A DNA stretch of 64,000 bases from a bacterium (lineage in GTDB: Bacteria; Desulfobacterota; Deferrisomatia; Deferrisomatales; BM512), in NCBI GenBank assembly GCA_004322275.1, contig SCTA01000015.1, forward strand, positions 1 to 64,000. The letters are read 5' to 3'. Each line of letters begins with the position of its first letter. Position 1 is the first letter of the stretch. The notes beneath the pieces were generated by a model, which saw only the letters and a list, made by a program, of their open reading frames with translations, was not told where the DNA came from and made no database searches. Position numbers and translations under genes: made by a program. This document shows, piece after piece, positions 5,802-17,642 of this stretch.

Positions 5802-5884
5802 ATCTTTTGCGCGGAGGCGAAACCGGATTAGACTTTCCAGGCAGCAGAACCGTTCGTTTGCTTCATTGGAAAGGAGAATCACCG

Positions 5885-6457
5885 ATGGCGAAGGTGGAAT
5901 GGCTGACCTCTTTCGAGAACGCGTTGGCGAAATCGCGTGAAACGGGCAAGCACGTCTTTCTGGATTTTTTCGACCCCGGCTGAATCGGCTGCCAGCAGAT
6001 GGACGCGGTCGCGTACCCAGACCCCTCGGTAGCCGATTTCATAGAAAAAAACCTCATCCCGCTGAGACTGATGTCTGACGACAGGGTTTACGCCGTCCGC
6101 TTCAGAATAAAGTGGACGCCCTCGCTTCTGGTGCTGGACAGCGACGGAGTGGAGCATTACCGCACTCTGGGTTTCTACCCACCGGCCGACCTTATCCCCT
6201 CGCTCATGCTGGGAATCGCCAAAACCTGGTTTAACAAGCCCGACAGACCGGCCTCGATCGCCGTTCTCGACCAGATAGTCAGCCAGCACCCCAGAAACTC
6301 CCTCGCGCCCGAGGCGGTCTACCTCGCCGGGGTCGCCCGCTACATCGAGACCCATCACCTCACGCACCTGACTGGAATCTACGACAAGCTCACCGCCGAT
6401 TATCCGGAGAGCGTTTGGGTTACTAGGTCTAGTCCTTACAGGCTGCTGAAGAAGTAA
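5885..6457 (+). CDS. thioredoxin-fold selenoprotein (UGA = Sec33), UxxC active site
   Basis: 190 aa if the in-frame TGA at 5981-5983 is read as selenocysteine. The start ATG 5885 follows AAGGAG with 8-nt spacing, so translation clearly begins before the TGA. The N-terminal part (MAKVEWLTSFENALAKSRE, then KHVFLDFFDPG) is a thioredoxin beta1-alpha1-beta2. The active site reads G-U-I-G-C, that is UxxC in place of CxxC. KWTPSLLVLD supplies the cis-Pro loop at about 75, and the C-terminal 90 residues are TPR-like helices. No signal peptide, so a cytoplasmic reductase is likely. A hairpin with a GGUC loop lies 24 nt after the UGA (6003-6014). Conventional calling would start at the Met after the UGA (5999) and lose the active site. 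Confidence 0.85.
6003..6014 (+). promoter_or_regulatory. candidate bacterial SECIS hairpin of the thioredoxin-like selenoprotein
   Basis: ACGC-GGTC-GCGT forms a 4-bp stem with a GGUC tetraloop, or 5 bp closing on GU. Flanking GG/ACC can extend it past a bulge. The GGUC loop is the one in E. coli fdhF SECIS. It starts 23 nt after the UGA, inside the 16-37 nt range of the published bacterial SECIS model. Confidence 0.65.
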
Positions 6458-6616: not shown

Positions 6617-8431
6617 TCACTCAGGCTTTGATTTATCCAGAATCGTGCCGGTGCGAATTGCCCCATCAAGTTTTGTCGTTTTATCGATAATTGCGCCGTC
6701 AAGGATTGCGTTGGTAAGGTTAGCATAGGACAGATTCGCCATTCTCAGGTCCGCCTCGTATAGGTTCGCCCCGGACAGGTTCGCCCCAAAAAGGTTCGCC
6801 CCGTACAAGTTCGCCCCGTACAAGTTCGCCCCAGACAGGTTCGCCCCGTACAAGTTCGCCCCGGACAGGTCCGCCCCAAAAAGGTTCGTCGCTTCCAGGC
6901 CCGCAACGTAAAGGTTCACCATGTGAAGGTTCGCCCCGGACAGGTTCGCCCCGGCCAGATTCGTCCTGGCCAGATTCGCCCTGGCCAGATACGCCCCGAC
7001 CAGATACGCCCCCGGTTTAATCACGTGACCGTTTATCTCCGGCCAGTGCTGCTCTTCCTCCCCAGTGGCCAAAACCTCTTCGGAAGATTCTTTTATTCGC
7101 TTTCGCGTGTCGGGGTCGGAAAGCCACTCTTTACCGGGTCCGGAGGAAAGGAGGTCGAGCAGCCGTTTATCAACCAGGAGTTTTTCCAGTACTGCTTTGT
7201 GAGGTTTTTTATGGTCAACTGAAATTTCCGCTTCAAAGAGACCGATGAGGTTGTTTTCACCATCCATGAGTTTGGCTAAGTAGAGGGATAAGCTGATGCA
7301 GTTATCAGTCACTCCAAAATCTTTCATTAAGGAGTCTGTTATCACCACGGGGTCGTTTTCTTCCAGTATGGAGAGAATTTCCGGCCACATCATCGAAAGG
7401 GCTTCATGCACCGCGAAGGGGGCGATTTTCAACTCGCCTTTGTCGCCTTTGTCGCCCTCCTCGATTTCGGCGACCTCGCGCATGACCAGCAGGCGGTTTA
7501 AAAAGCGTATTATCTTTCTTGGGTTTTCCCTGCAAGCCGGACAGATCGTTTCGCACAGGGCTTCTATGTCTTCTCCCGCAATTTTTCCGAAGATTTCCAT
7601 CTCAAGGAGCTGCTTGACGTAATCCTTTACCCGCTTTGTAATCGGGGGAATCTTGAAGGGCATCTGTACGATCTTGTCAAGATAGTTGCCGTAAAGCTCT
7701 TCGGGAATTTTGAGCCTCTCCGTGTACTTATGGCGGAGAAAAGCCTTGATTATCTCGGGCTCAAGGCCGAGGACGAAGGCGATGTTGCGCTGATGGAGTA
7801 CGAGCTTAATCGATTCGATGAGTTTTACGGCCTGAATGGGGAAACAGCGGTCGAGATCGTCAACGAATACCACGATTTTTGAATCGGAGCCCTCTGCGGC
7901 TTCGCGCAGCCCCTCGAAAGTGTTGAAGTAAAGGCTCCGTGCGGCGATCTTGTCAGCTTCCGTTTGAGACAGGTCTTCAAACTTGTCTATCGCTTTCCCA
8001 GCGTCCAGTTCGACAAGAGGCGGCTTTATTGCTATTCCGTAGAGAAGGCTTCTGAAAGCCTTGAGAACGCTGCCGGGTTTCGCCTTGGTTTTCCCCGCTG
8101 CTTTCTCTTTTTCTTCGAGCGCTTTGATTATCGTGGCGAGAAGGGGAATTACGAGGTGATCCTCTTTCTCGTACTGCCAGGCGTTGAACCATACGGTCGT
8201 TGCCCCGGCGTCCCTGAGCTTTTTCTCCATCATCCTCATGAGGCTGGTCTTGCCGCTCCCCCAGTCGCCGTAGACGCCTATTGTTATCGGCTCCTCGGTA
8301 TTGAAGGCCGCCGAGGCGAGTATGCGGGCGTAGCCGTCGAAACCTATCTTGTCTCCCTCTATTTTGCTCTGCCCGTCATAGACCGGTATGTCAGGCAGGA
8401 GACTAAAATTTTTTATGAGGCCTGTGGTCAT
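6617..8431 (-). CDS. KAP-family P-loop NTPase with C-terminal pentapeptide repeats
   Basis: 604 aa. Walker A is GDWGSGKTS (residues 55-63), preceded by the KAP-type IGVYG strand. Walker B is VVFVDDLDRC near 205, and a sensor-like region LGLEPEIIKAFL follows. Residues 300-330 (CRENPRKIIRFLNRL) fit the KAP helical lid. From about 483 to 580 the sequence becomes A(N/D)LxG-type pentapeptide repeats (GANLSGANL, GANLYGANL), predicting a right-handed quadrilateral beta-helix. KAP NTPases are an AAA-like group, often membrane-associated and some linked to phage exclusion (PifA). The usual transmembrane insertion is not obvious here. It is monocistronic; function unknown, a defence role is inference. 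Confidence 0.88.
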   Translation of the reverse strand: MTTGLIKNFSLLPDIPVYDGQSKIEGDKIGFDGYARILASAAFNTEEPITIGVYGDWGSGKTSLMRMMEKKLRDAGATTVWFNAWQYEKEDHLVIPLLATIIKALEEKEKAAGKTKAKPGSVLKAFRSLLYGIAIKPPLVELDAGKAIDKFEDLSQTEADKIAARSLYFNTFEGLREAAEGSDSKIVVFVDDLDRCFPIQAVKLIESIKLVLHQRNIAFVLGLEPEIIKAFLRHKYTERLKIPEELYGNYLDKIVQMPFKIPPITKRVKDYVKQLLEMEIFGKIAGEDIEALCETICPACRENPRKIIRFLNRLLVMREVAEIEEGDKGDKGELKIAPFAVHEALSMMWPEILSILEENDPVVITDSLMKDFGVTDNCISLSLYLAKLMDGENNLIGLFEAEISVDHKKPHKAVLEKLLVDKRLLDLLSSGPGKEWLSDPDTRKRIKESSEEVLATGEEEQHWPEINGHVIKPGAYLVGAYLARANLARTNLAGANLSGANLHMVNLYVAGLEATNLFGADLSGANLYGANLSGANLYGANLYGANLFGANLSGANLYEADLRMANLSYANLTNAILDGAIIDKTTKLDGAIRTGTILDKSKPE

Positions 8432-8640
8432 TTCGATTTTCCCTTCCGGATAAAATCAAAGTACATCCATGCGGTGACAGTATCCCCTTTCCTCCCTCAT
8501 TTCAAGATTCCGGAGCATCAGGCGCGGTTTGCGGCGGGCAGGATACGATTAGACCTCGATTTGCTATTGTGAGAGCATGGTTTGCAGTGTTTTACTGTCT
8601 GGATGGATTTTACAATGGACCGGGATTCTTCAGAAAAGCC

Positions 8641-10437
8641 ATGACTTATAAAAAATATTGGACGGCGATATTCGCGGCCCTGCTTGCGGCTCTGGTGCTG
8701 GCGGTCTACTGGCAGACGACGGGGTTCGAGCTTATAAACCTCGACGATTTCGATTACACGCTCCAGAATCCCGTGGTGAGCGGGGGACTGACCTCCTCGG
8801 GAATCAGGGAAGCCCTCACTTCAATTCCGCTTCACGTCTACATGCCGGTGCCGCTCCTCTCCCACATGGCCGACATCGAGTTTTTCGGCCCGAACCCGGG
8901 CCGCTTTCACCTCGTCAACACCCTCATCCACCTTTTTAACACCCTTTTGCTCTTTTTCTTCCTCCGCAGGGCCACCGGCTCGCCGTGGAAGAGCTTTTTC
9001 GCGGCGGCGCTTTGGGCTCTGCACCCTCTCCGTGTCGAATCCGTGGCCTGGGTCGCCGAGCGCAAAGACCTTCTTTCCGGGTTCTTTTTCCTTGCGGGTC
9101 TTCTCGCTTACCTCGAATACGCGAGGAGCCGGAAGCTTTTTCTCTACGCGGCGGCCCTCTTTGCGATGCTGCTGGGGCTGGCCTCCAAGCCGATTCTCGT
9201 CGTCTTTCCCCTCGTCCTGCTTATTGTGGATTTCTGGCCCCTCGCCAGAAAGGAGCCGGTAAAAAAACTCCTGCTGGAGAAGATCCCGTTTTTCGTTCTC
9301 TCCGTGTTTTTTTCCGCGCTGACGATTGTTAGCCAGAGTGCGACCATACGAACGGACGAGATGAGCGTACCGGCCCGGCTGGCTGATACCGCCACCTCTT
9401 ACTTCCATTATCTGAAGCTTACCTTCTGGCCCTTCGGGCTGATAATGGAGGACAGAGGGACGGCGGCCTCGCTTACCGGCTTTTGGGCGGCCGGCGCCGG
9501 GCTTTTGATAATCGCCATTACGTTCATGGCCTGGAAACTCAGAAAAGCCGCACCCGCGGTGACGGCGGGCTGGTGCTGGTATCTGGCGGCGCTTTTTCCC
9601 GTCAGCGGCGTCGTCCCTCTAAATTTTTACATCGTCGCCGACCACTTCACCTACCTGCCGCACGTCGGCCTGATGATAGCGCTGGTCTGGGGGGCGGAGA
9701 GGCTTTACACCGGTTATGTGAAGGAGGCAAGGCCGCTTGCGGCCGCCGGACTGGTCCTGATAGCCGTTCTGACGGTGCTCTCCTTCCGGCAGACCTCTCT
9801 CTGGAAGGACAGCTACACCTTGTTCGGCTATATCGACAGGGAAACCGGAGGAAGAAGCGCCGTGGCGAAAAACAGCCTCGCCATCTCCGATTTCAGGGCG
9901 GGAAAATTTCAGGAGGCTTACGACAGATTCAACGCGGTGCTGGCTCTGGACCCGGAATTCAACCGGGCGCACGGCTACAAGGGTATAGCGGCGGCGAAGC
10001 TGGGAAGATACCGGGAAGGGGTGTTTCTCTTAAAAAAACAGCTCCAGCTTTCTCCCGGCGAAAAGGATTTTTGCCTAAGGCTGGCGAACGTCATGCTTCT
10101 GGCGGGGGATCACCCCGGCGCGGCCCGTCAGGGTCTGGAGAACATCCGTCAGTGGCCCTCCGACAAGATAGCCTGGGAGGCCGTCAAATACTTCGGCGGG
10201 GAATTCGGTGCCAACATGACTGCGGGAAACGGCCTTGCCGCAAAGCAGTTATACCCGGAGGCCTTAAAATATTTCAGGGAGGCCGTGAGGCTGAAACCGG
10301 CGGATTTCAGAGCCCGCGTGAACCTCGGAGTAGTGCTCAGGGCCATCGGCGACGTTACGGGCGCTGAGAGGGAACTGGCTGAGGCGAGAAGGCTAAGCCC
10401 CGGAGAGCCCATTCCCGAAAGCGGGTTTTTTAACTAG
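8641..10437 (+). CDS. TMTC-like multi-pass membrane protein with C-terminal TPRs (paralogue 1)
   Basis: 598 aa from ATG 8641, chosen because the two paralogues begin at the equivalent residue. About 11-12 hydrophobic helices fill residues 1-385, with family motifs LINLDDFDYTLQNP, HPLRVESVAWVAERKDLLSG and a KPILVVFPLVLLIVDFWPL helix. Residues 400-598 carry about three to four TPR units (FQEAYDRFNAVLALDPEFNRA and similar). The family resembles eukaryotic TMTC O-mannosyltransferases and GT-C enzymes; the conserved LDD near the N-terminus could be the catalytic acidic site. Activity in bacteria is unproven. Paralogue 2 follows after 2 bp, so they form an operon. Confidence 0.85.
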   Translation: MTYKKYWTAIFAALLAALVLAVYWQTTGFELINLDDFDYTLQNPVVSGGLTSSGIREALTSIPLHVYMPVPLLSHMADIEFFGPNPGRFHLVNTLIHLFNTLLLFFFLRRATGSPWKSFFAAALWALHPLRVESVAWVAERKDLLSGFFFLAGLLAYLEYARSRKLFLYAAALFAMLLGLASKPILVVFPLVLLIVDFWPLARKEPVKKLLLEKIPFFVLSVFFSALTIVSQSATIRTDEMSVPARLADTATSYFHYLKLTFWPFGLIMEDRGTAASLTGFWAAGAGLLIIAITFMAWKLRKAAPAVTAGWCWYLAALFPVSGVVPLNFYIVADHFTYLPHVGLMIALVWGAERLYTGYVKEARPLAAAGLVLIAVLTVLSFRQTSLWKDSYTLFGYIDRETGGRSAVAKNSLAISDFRAGKFQEAYDRFNAVLALDPEFNRAHGYKGIAAAKLGRYREGVFLLKKQLQLSPGEKDFCLRLANVMLLAGDHPGAARQGLENIRQWPSDKIAWEAVKYFGGEFGANMTAGNGLAAKQLYPEALKYFREAVRLKPADFRARVNLGVVLRAIGDVTGAERELAEARRLSPGEPIPESGFFN

Positions 10438-10439
10438 CG

Positions 10440-12050
10440 ATGGATTACAGAAAACAACGGGCTGCGATATTGCTGGTTTTGCTTGCGGCGCTTGTGCTGG
10501 CTGTCTTCTGGCAATCCGCCGGGTTCGAGCTGATCAGGCTCGACGATTCAAAATACACCCTTTCAAATCCGGCGGTAAGGGGCGGGCTTTCCTGGTCGAA
10601 CGTCAAGGGAGCTTTCTCAACGGTCAAAATCGGCAATTTCATGCCGGTTACACAACTTTCGTACATGAGCGACGCCGAGATTTTCGGACTTAAGCCCTCG
10701 GGATTCCACATTACGAATGTTCTGATCCATCTTCTGAACTCGGTTCTTTTCTTCCTCTTCCTCTACAGGGCTACCGGGTCGCCGTATAAGAGCTTTTTTG
10801 CCGCCGCTCTCTGGGCAGTTCACCCGCTCCGCGCGGAGTCGGTCGCCTGGGTCGCCGAAAGAAGCGACCTCCTCTCGGGACTGTTTTTCTTTCTCGCGCT
10901 TTTCCCATACTCCAGGTACGCAGAAAAGAAAGAACCCGCCGGTTATCTGCTCGCTCTGTCGCTGTTTTTTCTGGGAATCGCTTCTAAACCGACCCTTGCC
11001 GTCTTCCCCCTGATTCTTCTTATATTCGATTTTTGGCCGCTGGAAAGGGTTCAACGTCAGGGAGAGGCGGTAAAAAACCTGCTCGTCGAGAAAATCCCCT
11101 TTCTTGCGCTCTCCGTTCTTTTTTCGGTTATAACGCTCGGAAACCAGTCCGTCTCCGTAAGCAATATGGAAGAGCGGGGGTTGCCGGAGCTTTTGTCCAC
11201 AGTCGTATCCTCCTGCGCGCATTACCTGCGGGCAACTTTCTTGCCGGTGGACCTTGTCATGCAGTACGGGCGGCCCGCCGGTTACCTTTCCGGGGTGTGG
11301 GCTGCTCTGGCCTGGCTGGCGCTTGCAGCCGCCGGATTTCTTGCCTGGCGGTACAGGAAAAAAGCCCCGGCGGAGGTTGCGGGCTGGTGCTGGTATCTGG
11401 CCGCCCTCCTGCCCGTAAGCGGAATCGTCCCGCTAGGTTTTTACTACGTCGCCGACCATTTTACCTACCTGCCCCACGCCGGTCTTATGATTGCCCTGGT
11501 GTGGGGCGCCTGCAGCGTCTACGGAAAATTCACGAAAGAGATGCGGCCGCCCGGCGTCGCCGGAGCAGCGGCGCTGATCGTACTTTCCGTCCTTTGTTTC
11601 CGGCAGGTTTCGGTATGGCGCGACGGCTACGCCTTCTTCGGTTACATAGACAGGGCGACGGCGGGAAGAAGCGCTCTCGCGAAAAACGGCCTGGCGGTGA
11701 ACGATCTATTTGCGGGCAGGTTTCGCGAGGCTTACGACAATCTCGGCAAGGTAATCGAGCTGGACCCTTCTTTCCGGTATGCGAACGGCTACAAAGGCAT
11801 AGCGGCGGAAAAGCTGGGGAGATTCCGGGAGGCGGCGGGACTTTACAAAAAACAGCTTCAGCAGTTTCCCGGCGAGATGGATTACAGCGTCAAGCTCGCC
11901 AACGTCCTCATTATGGCCGGCGATTTGCCCGGCGCGGCGCGGCAGGGGCTTGAAAACACCGGCAGGTGGCCGAACGAAAAGGTCGCGTGGGACGCAGTCA
12001 ACCTCCTCGGCGGAGAAGCGAGGGCGAGGGCTCTGGCCCTTAATCCCTGA
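10440..12050 (+). CDS. TMTC-like multi-pass membrane protein with TPRs (paralogue 2)
   Basis: 536 aa; ATG 2 bp after the stop of paralogue 1, clearly a tandem duplicate. It shares LIRLDDSKYTLSNP, HPLRAESVAWVAERSDLLSG, KPTLAVFPLILLIFDFWPLE and AGWCWYLAALLPVSGIVPL. It is about 60 residues shorter, lacking the last TPR unit, and ends in a short Ala-rich tail. Predicted inner-membrane GT-C-like protein with a soluble TPR domain; substrate unknown. Its 3' end overlaps the convergent gene by 11 bp. Confidence 0.85.
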   Translation: MDYRKQRAAILLVLLAALVLAVFWQSAGFELIRLDDSKYTLSNPAVRGGLSWSNVKGAFSTVKIGNFMPVTQLSYMSDAEIFGLKPSGFHITNVLIHLLNSVLFFLFLYRATGSPYKSFFAAALWAVHPLRAESVAWVAERSDLLSGLFFFLALFPYSRYAEKKEPAGYLLALSLFFLGIASKPTLAVFPLILLIFDFWPLERVQRQGEAVKNLLVEKIPFLALSVLFSVITLGNQSVSVSNMEERGLPELLSTVVSSCAHYLRATFLPVDLVMQYGRPAGYLSGVWAALAWLALAAAGFLAWRYRKKAPAEVAGWCWYLAALLPVSGIVPLGFYYVADHFTYLPHAGLMIALVWGACSVYGKFTKEMRPPGVAGAAALIVLSVLCFRQVSVWRDGYAFFGYIDRATAGRSALAKNGLAVNDLFAGRFREAYDNLGKVIELDPSFRYANGYKGIAAEKLGRFREAAGLYKKQLQQFPGEMDYSVKLANVLIMAGDLPGAARQGLENTGRWPNEKVAWDAVNLLGGEARARALALNP

Positions 12051-14653: not shown

Positions 14654-15964
14654 GTGAGCAATCCGGGTTGCACAAATAACAACATCGCACCGATAATCCC
14701 CGCCAAAGACATTGGCGAAGTCTACGACAACTTCGATCAGGCTTTGCCTGTAGACCCGTCTTCCGAGCAGTACATTCCTCGCGATGATCCTCAACTGAGA
14801 AGATTGGTTTTAGACCTTATCAGAGCAAAAACTTCTCTCCATGCCTTTCTTTGCGGACACAGGGGAAGCGGCAAGACCACAGAACTGAGAAAGCTCTGCA
14901 AAATAAAAGAAATCGGCGAGAACTACATCCCGGTTTTCCTTACCGCTCAGAATTTCGGAACGGAATCGGTAAACCTTACCCACGATGCCTTGCTCGTCGA
15001 AATAGGGCGCAGCATGGCTGAGGCCGGAAAGGAATACGGCGTTACGGGTTCCTATGAGAAGGAACTGGTGGATTGGGGCCGCGAGATAATTTCAAAACTG
15101 GTTAAGAGCGAATCGCTGAAAGCGGAGGCTGGCGCTAAGGCTAACTGGTGGCCTTTCTATTTCAAGGTCGTTGGCTCGACGAGCAAGGACAGAACCCAGG
15201 AAGAAAAGCAGATACTGGCACCTAAAATCGAGGATTTGATAAACATCCTTGACAGGATGGCGCAGGACATAAGGAACAAAACCGGCAAGCGGATTCTTGT
15301 GATTGTAGACGATCTCGAAAAGGGAGAATCCGACGCCGAAAAGGATATGCACAACCGTCTTTTTCAGGAAAATTACGATTCCCTTGTGCGTCCCGCGTTA
15401 TCCATAGTCTACACGTTGCCGATATATTTTCGCGCCATGCCCGGAAGCCGGGTTCCTCTCGGAGAGATATACGCTTTTTCAGCGATTCACATATATAGCC
15501 GCGCCGAGAAAAGAAAAACAACTCCTCAGCCTGACAGAGACAACCGCGATTACGGGATAATGAAAAACTTCATCGAAAAGCGCGTACATTCCCCCAATGC
15601 GCTTTTCGAGGAGAAAACGATAGACGAGTTGATACTTATCGGTGGAGGTCTTTTCAGAGAGACTGCAAGGGCCGTTCGTTTGGCCGCCGGTGAGGCGCTG
15701 GCGCGAAAAGGCGACAAAATAACTTTCAAGGATGTTGAATACGCCTTTAACTCGATTAAAAAAGACTACCAGCCGATGATCCGGGGGGAAGATGTAAACA
15801 TCCTCCGCAAGGTATACGACAGCGAGGAAGGATGGGTGGCGGGCGTCGAGCCCTTCTTGCAGGCCCGTGCAGTTGTAGAGTATGAAAACGGAGACCTTTG
15901 GCTGGATCTTCGCTATGTTCTAAAAGACTACGTCCTGAAGTTGAGCGATGCCGAAAAAGGATGA
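14654..15964 (+). CDS. P-loop ATPase, first gene of an ATPase-TPR pair
   Basis: 436 aa from GTG 14654, which has GAGGAG 8 nt upstream; a TTG at 14618 is in frame but has no such site. Walker A is GHRGSGKTTELRKL (about residues 68-81) and Walker B is RILVIVDDLEK (about 217-227), consistent with an AAA/STAND-like NTPase. PRDDPQLRRLVLDLIRAKTS before the P-loop resembles the N-linker of AAA_16-type proteins. The C-terminal 100 residues (about 335-436, including DVEYAFNSIKKDYQPM) may be a winged helix. The gene overlaps the following TPR gene by 17 bp, so the two products are very likely partners. Function unknown; the arrangement is common in bacterial conflict systems, but that is inference. Confidence 0.85.
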   Translation: MSNPGCTNNNIAPIIPAKDIGEVYDNFDQALPVDPSSEQYIPRDDPQLRRLVLDLIRAKTSLHAFLCGHRGSGKTTELRKLCKIKEIGENYIPVFLTAQNFGTESVNLTHDALLVEIGRSMAEAGKEYGVTGSYEKELVDWGREIISKLVKSESLKAEAGAKANWWPFYFKVVGSTSKDRTQEEKQILAPKIEDLINILDRMAQDIRNKTGKRILVIVDDLEKGESDAEKDMHNRLFQENYDSLVRPALSIVYTLPIYFRAMPGSRVPLGEIYAFSAIHIYSRAEKRKTTPQPDRDNRDYGIMKNFIEKRVHSPNALFEEKTIDELILIGGGLFRETARAVRLAAGEALARKGDKITFKDVEYAFNSIKKDYQPMIRGEDVNILRKVYDSEEGWVAGVEPFLQARAVVEYENGDLWLDLRYVLKDYVLKLSDAEKG

Positions 15965-17642
15965 GTTTTCCCGCTTCGACGGCATAGCGGAAGCGGTCGT
16001 CTCCCGCGCCGAGCGCGCTTTCAACTCGGAGCGTTCAAGCTTTCAGATAGTCGTTTATCTCCATGAAAACGAAAAAATAGAGCTCCTCCGGCGGATACAC
16101 GCCCGGCTTCGCGAGCATAATCTGACTCCCCGCGAATTATCACCCTCACACCGCGATGAGCACGTCTTTACAAAGCTCTATTCCCAGATAACGGAAGCGT
16201 CGAAAGGCCGCATGCTCAGCCTCGTTACCGACGTGCCCAGGGGTGAAAAAGGCATGGGGCCGGACACTGATTTTCTCCAGTACCTGAACATCCACCGCGA
16301 TACGATAGCAAGAGAGCATCTGCGCTTCGTTCTCTTTCTCCATGAGCCCGACGTTGAACCCTTCATGCGCATGGCCGGAGACCTATGGGATTTTCGCAGC
16401 CATACCTACTGGCTGAACGAAGACCTTGAACTGCGAAAGGACAAGGCCGAAGGGTTTTCATGGCTGGACGAAGCGGCTGAAGATATTGATAAAAACAATC
16501 CCGAAGCCGGTGAAGTCGCCGATCATTTAGCCAGAACCAGAAAACTTCTCGAAGAGACCGCAGGAGCGGAGGACAGAGCGAATCTTCTGCTTTCTCTGAC
16601 TCAATGGTTCCAGCGCCGAAACATGTGGGAAGAAGCCATAAAGGCTGCAAGAGAGGGGCTCGCGCAACTCGAAGAAAGCGATGCCAGTTCCCTTAAGGCG
16701 CAACTTGAGAACGGAATTGGTTATATGCTTAAGCACATGGGGCATTCACATCAAGCCCTGGAGCATTATAAAAAAAGCCTTGGTATTTCCCGTGAAGTCG
16801 GCGACCGGTGGGGCGAGGGAGCGGTGCTGAACAACATCTCCCAAATCTATAGTGGCTGGGGCAAGTACGATCAGGCTTTGAAAGCCCTTGAGGAGAGCCT
16901 CGCCATTCTTCAGGAAGTCGGTGACCGGAAGGGCGAGGGAGCGGTGCTGAACAACATCTCCCAAATCTATAGTGGCTGGGGCAAGTACGATCAGGCTTTG
17001 AAAGCCCTTGAGAAGAGCCTCGCCATTCGCCGGGAGGTCGGCGACCGGCAGGGCGAGGGAGTGACGTTGAACAACATCTCTCAGATTTACGATGGCTGGG
17101 GCAAGTACGATCAGGCTTTGAAAGCCCTTGAGGAGAGCCTCGCCATTCTCCGGGAGGTCGGCGACCGGCAGGGCGAGGGAGTGACGCTGAACAACATCTC
17201 CCAAATCTATAGAACTTGGGGCAAGTACGATCAGGCTTTGAAAGCCCTTGAGGAGAGCCTCGCCATTCGCCGGGAGGTCGGCGACCGGAAGGGTGAGGGA
17301 GTGACGTTAAACAACATTGCCTCCACATACCATAGGTTAGGGAAATTCGCTCAAGCGTTGAAGGCCCTTGAAGAAAGTCTCGCCATTCGCCAGGAGGTTG
17401 GCGACCGGCAGGGTGAGGGAGTTTCGTGCGGAAATCTTTCGGTTCTCTGGGGGAAGATGGGAAACCATGCTAAATCGGAGAAGTATGCCCGCTTGAGTCG
17501 CGAAATATTGTCTGAAATAGGCCACGATGATGCCACGTGGGCTAAAGGGCTTATTAAAGGTTCCGGGGTGGTAAAATCCATCGGTAAGGCGGAACCCTCG
17601 GCCAAAAAGAGCAAAAAACGCTCCAGGCCAAAGAAAAGATAG
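15948..17642 (+). CDS. TPR-repeat protein with novel N-terminal domain, partner of the ATPase
   Basis: 564 aa. Residues 1-190 form an unrecognised alpha/beta domain (VVYLHENEKIELLRRIHARL; LRFVLFLHEPDVEPFMRM) that could be a nucleotide-binding or effector fold. From about 205 onward there are helical repeats, with five to six 40-residue kinesin-light-chain-type TPRs (VGDRxGEGxxLNNISQIY..WGKYDQALKALEESLAI) at about 280-500. Their DNA is nearly identical in 120-bp units. The tail is strongly basic (KKSKKRSRPKKR), suggesting nucleic-acid contact. The ATG lies within the end of the ATPase gene. Predicted cytoplasmic scaffold or sensor working with the ATPase. Confidence 0.85.
   Translation: MPKKDEFSRFDGIAEAVVSRAERAFNSERSSFQIVVYLHENEKIELLRRIHARLREHNLTPRELSPSHRDEHVFTKLYSQITEASKGRMLSLVTDVPRGEKGMGPDTDFLQYLNIHRDTIAREHLRFVLFLHEPDVEPFMRMAGDLWDFRSHTYWLNEDLELRKDKAEGFSWLDEAAEDIDKNNPEAGEVADHLARTRKLLEETAGAEDRANLLLSLTQWFQRRNMWEEAIKAAREGLAQLEESDASSLKAQLENGIGYMLKHMGHSHQALEHYKKSLGISREVGDRWGEGAVLNNISQIYSGWGKYDQALKALEESLAILQEVGDRKGEGAVLNNISQIYSGWGKYDQALKALEKSLAIRREVGDRQGEGVTLNNISQIYDGWGKYDQALKALEESLAILREVGDRQGEGVTLNNISQIYRTWGKYDQALKALEESLAIRREVGDRKGEGVTLNNIASTYHRLGKFAQALKALEESLAIRQEVGDRQGEGVSCGNLSVLWGKMGNHAKSEKYARLSREILSEIGHDDATWAKGLIKGSGVVKSIGKAEPSAKKSKKRSRPKKR
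16790..17440 (+). repeat. tandem 120-bp coding repeats (about 5.4 units)
   Basis: Consecutive 120-bp units, for example around GGCAAGTACGATCAGGCTTT at 16860, 16980, 17100 and 17220, are almost identical in bases, synonymous sites included. This points to recent duplication or gene conversion. Each unit encodes one 40-residue TPR. The last unit (from about 17330) has diverged. Confidence 0.9.

What the first reader, a model, noticed from the sequence alone, without database searches (positions are those of the whole stretch)
5885..6457. Thioredoxin-fold selenoprotein with a UxxC active site
A strong ribosome site and ATG at 5885 lead into a thioredoxin N-terminus whose active site reads G-U-I-G-C, with TGA at 5981-5983 in the first Cys position. 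Normal calling starts downstream of the catalytic motif. A GGUC-loop hairpin lies at 6003-6014. The C-terminal half is TPR-like, so this is a thioredoxin-TPR combination.
Basis: partly seen in the sequence, partly recalled or inferred. Interest (0 to 1): 0.83.

Follow-up and report, generated by a model that had tools for sequence, protein, structure and literature searches.

The report
Selenocysteine thioredoxin with TPR tail
This gene, which ordinary gene callers cut short at an in-frame UGA, encodes a small thioredoxin-fold redox protein with selenocysteine in its active site and a helical repeat tail; it is a very well supported member of a widespread selenoprotein family that was probably already catalogued as 'thiol:disulfide interchange protein' but never characterised.

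Summary
Window 5885-6457 (+) is one 190-residue gene whose only in-frame stop before its end is TGA at 5981-5983, giving the active site G-U-I-G-C. The same genome has SelA, SelB, SelD (itself with an in-frame TGA) and tRNA-Sec. A phylum-wide profile search found 91 homologues in 84 of 395 genomes: 80 carry exactly one in-frame stop, always TGA, and 11 carry none. In the 86 distinct Sec homologues the reading frame is conserved on both sides of TGA. Ribosome sites precede the upstream start in 82 of 89 genes, but the first ATG after TGA in only 2 of 89. A SECIS-type hairpin with a G near the tip is predicted in 86 of 86, against 55% in synonymous recodings. AlphaFold gives a confident two-domain model, thioredoxin fold plus TPR helices (pLDDT 95). 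Novelty is modest: the 2006-2026 literature lists a UxxC 'thiol:disulfide interchange protein' selenoprotein (PF13098) in Geobacter and Syntrophus, very probably this family. The TPR tail, the breadth and the absence of any NCBIfam model are the new points. Function as a TPR-targeted disulfide reductase or chaperedoxin-like protein is inferred.

The parts
5868..5876 (+). Shine-Dalgarno region (GGAAAGGAG) of the full-length gene
   Evidence: Seen directly. Such a motif precedes the pre-UGA start in 82 of 89 homologues, but the first post-UGA ATG in only 2 of 89.
5885..6457 (+). Selenoprotein gene, 190 residues plus TAA; Thioredoxin_7/Thioredoxin_2 domain with a C-terminal TPR-like domain
   Evidence: Translation with TGA=U, Pfam, 91 homologues in the phylum, structure model with mean pLDDT 95.
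5885..6184 (+). Thioredoxin-fold domain, residues 1-100, with UxxC (U33, C36) and the W77-T78-P79 loop (cis-Pro position of the thioredoxin fold)
   Evidence: Invariant columns W6, D27, F28, U/C33, G35, C36, W77, T78, P79; secondary structure.
5981..5983 (+). In-frame TGA read as selenocysteine 33
   Evidence: Same column holds TGA in 89 of 90 scored homologues and TGC in one; interrupted homologues in the phylum have only TGA.
6001..6017 (+). Predicted bacterial SECIS apical hairpin: bulged 6-bp stem, loop GGUC at 6007-6010, 23 nt after UGA
   Evidence: Hairpin with the +27 G in its loop in 86 of 86 Sec homologues, against 55% in synonymous recodings; mean MFE -9.3 against -3.9. The third base of codon +10 is G in 86 of 86, against 24% G at other Thr/Ala codons.
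6185..6454 (+). C-terminal TPR-like helical domain, residues 101-190
   Evidence: Helices 100-117, 121-134, 141-156, 159-172 and 177-188 in the model; TPR_6, TPR_14, YfiO and YbgF profile matches in family members.

Best explanation
The gene encodes a cytoplasmic selenoprotein: a DsbD-gamma/Thioredoxin_7-type thioredoxin domain with a UxxC active site, followed by a short TPR domain. SHOWN by comparison: UGA 5981 is a sense codon read as selenocysteine, decoded by the genome's SelA/SelB/SelD/tRNA-Sec with a SECIS hairpin just downstream. INFERRED: Sec33 attacks a disulfide (or another oxidised thiol) in a client, Cys36 resolves the mixed selenenylsulfide, and a thioredoxin-reductase-like flavoprotein re-reduces the pair, while the TPR tail selects or holds the client protein. 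In this it would work like the reductase-type chaperedoxin CnoX of Caulobacter, though it is not shown to belong to that family. The confidence given is for the selenoprotein identity together with a thiol-redox role; for the TPR client-binding part alone it is about 0.5.
For: Complete Sec machinery in the same genome: SelB 367.5 bits, tRNA-Sec 70.1 bits, SelA 570.2 bits, SelD 366.1 bits with one in-frame TGA. TGA at a single alignment column in homologues sharing 32-55% identity with the window protein. In the phylum, 80 of 91 homologues have one TGA and none has TAA/TAG. A Cys homologue exists. SelB is absent from 4 of 9 genomes that have only stop-free homologues but from only 2 of 33 TGA genomes (Fisher p = 0.013); of those two, one is 67% complete. 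Purifying selection acts before the TGA about as it does after: pN/pS 0.33 and 0.26. Ribosome sites sit at the upstream start. SECIS hairpin in 86 of 86. Structure model pLDDT 95; DsbD-gamma, Thermus thioredoxin and the Trx-TPR protein YbbN/CnoX are among the best Foldseek matches. No signal peptide-like stretch at the N-terminus (by inspection).
Against: No protein-level evidence. The window's own SECIS hairpin (-6.6 kcal/mol in isolation) misses the published -7.5 cut-off and is not exceptional by itself. No conserved gene neighbourhood names a substrate or reductase; a pyridine-nucleotide-disulfide oxidoreductase neighbours only 5 of about 90 homologues. The match to YbbN/CnoX over both domains is poor (TM 0.43-0.44, rmsd above 10 Angstrom), so the domains are arranged differently. 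The genome of the same genus and those of the same family that were searched lack the gene, so it is dispensable.
Confidence: 0.85

Rival explanations
1. The UGA is a true stop and the real gene starts at ATG 5999, as automatic callers would have it; the upstream part is untranslated or a short separate peptide.
For: Standard ORF listing gives 5999-6457, 152 aa.
Against: A start at 5999 would remove half the thioredoxin fold and the active site. The first post-UGA ATG has a ribosome site in 2 of 89 homologues, the upstream start in 82 of 89. Upstream codons are conserved and under purifying selection, and Cys homologues run straight through.
Confidence: 0.02
2. A pseudogene or sequencing error created the TGA.
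For: Single-nucleotide changes can make TGA from TGC/TGT.
Against: The identical TGA occurs in dozens of independent genomes across Desulfobacterota, Nitrospirota and others, with no TAA or TAG in that position.
Confidence: 0.005
3. It is a real selenoprotein but acts as a plain thioredoxin-like or DsbD-gamma-like electron carrier; the TPR tail has a structural or oligomerisation role and no chaperone function.
For: Closest sequence relatives with structures are a putative disulfide isomerase (2kuc), Thermus thioredoxin (2lst) and DsbD-gamma. The name given in the literature is 'thiol:disulfide interchange protein'.
Against: The C-terminal domain is conserved with its own invariant residues (E143, A144, W178) and is kept even in paralogues that have lost the catalytic Cys (L163, L166), which suggests a role of its own.
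Confidence: 0.4

Closest known systems
'Thiol:disulfide interchange protein' selenoprotein family (PF13098, UxxC, representative WP_011366075.1; Zhang et al. 2006 PMC1794560; catalogue in PMC9312934 and PMC13188914)
   Same: Thioredoxin_2-type fold with a UxxC site. Reported in Geobacter metallireducens, G. uraniumreducens and Syntrophus aciditrophicus, the same lineages in which this family is common. The window protein passes the PF13098 cut-off (42.1 against 27 bits).
   Different: The representative's sequence could not be obtained here, so identity is not proven. The held texts searched do not mention a TPR domain, and the 2006 count was 3 proteins against 80 here.
CnoX/YbbN chaperedoxins (thioredoxin-TPR)
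   Same: Domain order Trx then TPR; YbbN structures 3qdn and 3qou rank 1 and 3 in the PDB fold search. Caulobacter CnoX is a reductase (PMC6282202).
   Different: 190 aa against about 285; Sec instead of Cys or Ser; poor superposition over both domains; the CnoX C-terminal family TPR_20 (PF14561) was not found in this genome at all.
DsbD-gamma domain (cd02953-type; PDB 1uc7, 2fwe)
   Same: Best-known sequence and fold neighbour of the N-terminal domain.
   Different: DsbD is a periplasmic/membrane protein with other domains; here the protein is soluble without a signal peptide and ends in TPR helices.
Other Trx-fold selenoproteins in NCBIfam (TsoB NF045694, VPGUxxT NF041383, Trx7/PDZ NF041199)
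   Same: Trx-like fold and Sec in a redox motif; weak matches to the Trx part.
   Different: All far below the curated cut-offs (28 against 805, 30 against 275, 19 against 300 bits), with different motifs and partner domains.

Membership tests
Bacterial selenoprotein | In-frame UGA aligned with a redox-active Cys of homologues | tested here: met
   TGA in 89 of 90 scored homologues, TGC in one at the same column.
Bacterial selenoprotein | Sec decoding genes in the same genome | tested here: met
   SelA, SelB, SelD and tRNA-Sec over their cut-offs.
Bacterial selenoprotein | bSECIS: 3-9 nt loop, stem of at least 4 bp, G in first two loop positions, 16-37 nt from UGA | tested here: met
   Loop GGUC, 6 bp with a bulge, 23 nt; present in 86 of 86 homologues.
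Bacterial selenoprotein | bSECIS MFE at or below -7.5 kcal/mol | tested here: inconclusive
   Hairpin alone -6.6; the 50-nt region that contains it -10.7; family mean -9.3.
Bacterial selenoprotein | Selenium in the purified protein | not testable with these tools
   Needs mass spectrometry or 75Se labelling.
'Thiol:disulfide interchange protein' UxxC selenoprotein family (PF13098) | PF13098 domain with UxxC | tested here: met
   PF13098 E = 1.2e-10, above cut-off; U33-I-G-C36.
'Thiol:disulfide interchange protein' UxxC selenoprotein family (PF13098) | Homology to the representative WP_011366075.1 | not testable with these tools
CnoX/YbbN chaperedoxin | Trx domain followed by TPR domain | tested here: met
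CnoX/YbbN chaperedoxin | CnoX-type C-terminal TPR (TPR_20, PF14561) and same domain arrangement | tested here: not met
   No PF14561 match in this genome; superposition TM 0.43-0.44.
CnoX/YbbN chaperedoxin | Holdase activity and hand-over to GroEL/DnaK | not testable with these tools
   Biochemistry needed.

The most novel reading that the evidence does not exclude
The family is a distinct, so far undescribed selenium-based chaperedoxin: a cytoplasmic thioredoxin-TPR selenoprotein that captures clients with its TPR tail and reduces or protects their thiols with selenocysteine, separate from the catalogued 'thiol:disulfide interchange protein'.
Probability: 0.2. Interest if true: 0.55.

Novelty: new member of a known kind. 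Interest (0 to 1): 0.36.

Why it matters
About a fifth of the sampled genomes of this phylum (84 of 395) carry the gene, mostly in the Sec form. No NCBIfam model names it, so automatic annotation would drop the catalytic half. A model would correct many genomes at once. The Trx-TPR layout with selenocysteine also gives a concrete, testable case of a possible selenium-dependent chaperone-reductase in anaerobic metal- and sulfate-reducing bacteria.

Tried and rejected
The first genome-contig scan with the single protein found nothing; the alignment-based scan then worked. Rfam at gathering thresholds has no SECIS hit in the window. Folding the 50 nt after UGA gives no stability above shuffles (z = +1.5), so single-sequence folding was dropped in favour of the family-wide recoding test. 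Conserved neighbours were sought in about 90 loci: the most frequent is an ordinary response regulator in 10, and the only recurrent redox gene is a flavin oxidoreductase in 5, so no operon argument is made. The stop-codon and pseudogene readings were rejected. A text search for the motif UIGC was useless. The U23-A30 to C23-G30 change in the hairpin looks like covariation, but it marks one clade (12 of 12 sequences) and shifts the stem register, so it counts as one event and not as a compensated base pair.

Full report
From ATG 5885 to TAA 6455-6457 the frame holds one stop codon before its end, TGA at 5981-5983, and the translation reads MAKVEWLTSFENALAKSRETGKHVFLDFFDPG-U-IGCQQM.... A mechanical ORF caller begins at 5999, after the motif.

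The genome can decode Sec. In the window's own assembly (2.88 Mb, 45 contigs, completeness 100%) SelB (367.5 bits), SelA (570.2), SelD (366.1, itself containing an in-frame TGA) and tRNA-Sec (70.1 bits) all exceed their curated thresholds.

Homologues settle the reading frame. Of 59 related genomes searched, 11 besides the window's own hold an end-to-end homologue at 34-55% identity by that search; ten have a TGA and one (L018) TGC at the same column. An alignment search of GTDB species genomes kept the best 80 loci of 173 relatives. Over these and the first set, 89 of 90 scored sequences have TGA and one TGC; that scan used patterns from a Sec-rich alignment, so it is not a census. The census is the profile search of 395 genomes of the phylum with stops read through: 91 matches in 84 genomes, 80 with exactly one TGA, 11 with no stop, none with TAA or TAG (counted from the table by hand). 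The stop-free copies fetched have CxxC, CxxS or no Cys. SelB is missing from 4 of 9 genomes with only stop-free copies and from 2 of 33 with TGA copies (Fisher p = 0.013, not corrected for relatedness).

The upstream part is coding. W6, D27 and F28 before the UGA are invariant among the first 12 sequences. Among 65 closer pairs pN/pS is 0.33 before and 0.26 after the UGA. A Shine-Dalgarno-like motif precedes the upstream start in 82 of 89 genes, but the first ATG after UGA in only 2 of 89.

The SECIS evidence is a family property. By itself the window's hairpin is ordinary: -6.6 kcal/mol, reached by 19% of synonymous recodings. Across 86 distinct Sec genes, all 86 fold a hairpin with the +27 G in its loop, against 55% of recoded controls (maximum 65% in 20 rounds), and mean energy is -9.3 against -3.9 kcal/mol. 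The third base of codon +10 (Thr or Ala, fourfold degenerate) is G in 86 of 86, against 24% in the other Thr/Ala codons of these genes. Loop size, stem length, G position and spacing (23 nt) fit the published bSECIS model (PMC13188914); only its energy cut-off is missed by the isolated hairpin.

Architecture: Thioredoxin_7 and Thioredoxin_2 match above their cut-offs, and TPR_6 matches 9 of 12 members. The AlphaFold model (mean pLDDT 95, pTM 0.90, 12-sequence alignment) shows a thioredoxin fold to about residue 100 and five further helices. Foldseek's best PDB matches are the Trx-TPR protein YbbN/CnoX and single-domain DsbD-gamma and thioredoxin structures. YbbN superposes badly over both domains (TM 0.43-0.44), while DsbD-gamma fits the N-terminal domain (TM about 0.7-0.77 by target). 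No signal peptide is apparent, so a cytoplasmic place is inferred.

Mechanism: Sec33 as attacking selenolate and Cys36 as resolving thiol follow from the thioredoxin mechanism (established knowledge). The TPR tail as client-binding part is an inference from CnoX, where the Caulobacter protein is both holdase and reductase (PMC6282202). Membership in CnoX is not claimed: PF14561 is not met in this genome. Genes next to it give no further clue.

Novelty: the 2006 survey lists a 'thiol:disulfide interchange protein' selenoprotein family with three members, in Syntrophus aciditrophicus, Geobacter metallireducens and G. uraniumreducens (PMC1794560). Later reviews give it as PF13098, UxxC, WP_011366075.1 (PMC9312934, PMC13188914). 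Fold, motif and host lineages agree with the present family, so I judge about 80% that it is the same; the sequence could not be fetched. What seems new is the TPR domain, the breadth (Desulfobacterota, Nitrospirota and single MAG contigs labelled Planctomycetota, Bacillota, Nitrospinota, Bacteroidota) and the lack of any NCBIfam model.

The tree places the window protein with Geobacter, Trichlorobacter and Desulfobulbaceae sequences (support 100/100) rather than with the same-order genome G008, and the same-genus genome lacks the gene. This fits gain by transfer or repeated loss and was not tested further.

Noticed in passing
L158, L160-L166 (one family of the same phylum, f60): Stop-free paralogues mostly have CxxS (for example PGCEGS) and two have no Cys at the site at all (L163 GGVTDEGS, L166 PLEEGS) yet keep the TPR tail, suggesting a redox-independent role of the fold in that lineage.
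   Followed up: partly
G000:C25:46122-47045 (L048): The genome's SelD gene itself contains an in-frame TGA, so SelD is probably a selenoprotein too.
   Followed up: no
window 6617-8431 (-): KAP-family P-loop NTPase fused to a long run of pentapeptide repeats, directly downstream and convergent with the selenoprotein gene.
   Followed up: partly
window 8569-10437 and 10440-12050 (+): Two adjacent large membrane proteins with C-terminal repeat-like parts that look like tandem paralogues.
   Followed up: no
window 15948-17642 (+): Protein with several nearly identical repeats of about 40 residues (LNNISQIYSGWGKYDQALKALEESL), a recent TPR-like expansion.
   Followed up: no
L128, L069, L090, L103, L073: In five loci a pyridine-nucleotide-disulfide oxidoreductase (thioredoxin-reductase-like) lies next to or near the selenoprotein gene; a possible reductant.
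   Followed up: partly
hairpin positions +22 to +35 in 12 sequences including the window: The clade with Ala instead of Thr at codon +10 uses a shifted SECIS stem register (CGC/GCG with loop GGUC) where the other sequences use a different one, with matching base changes at +23 and +30.
   Followed up: partly
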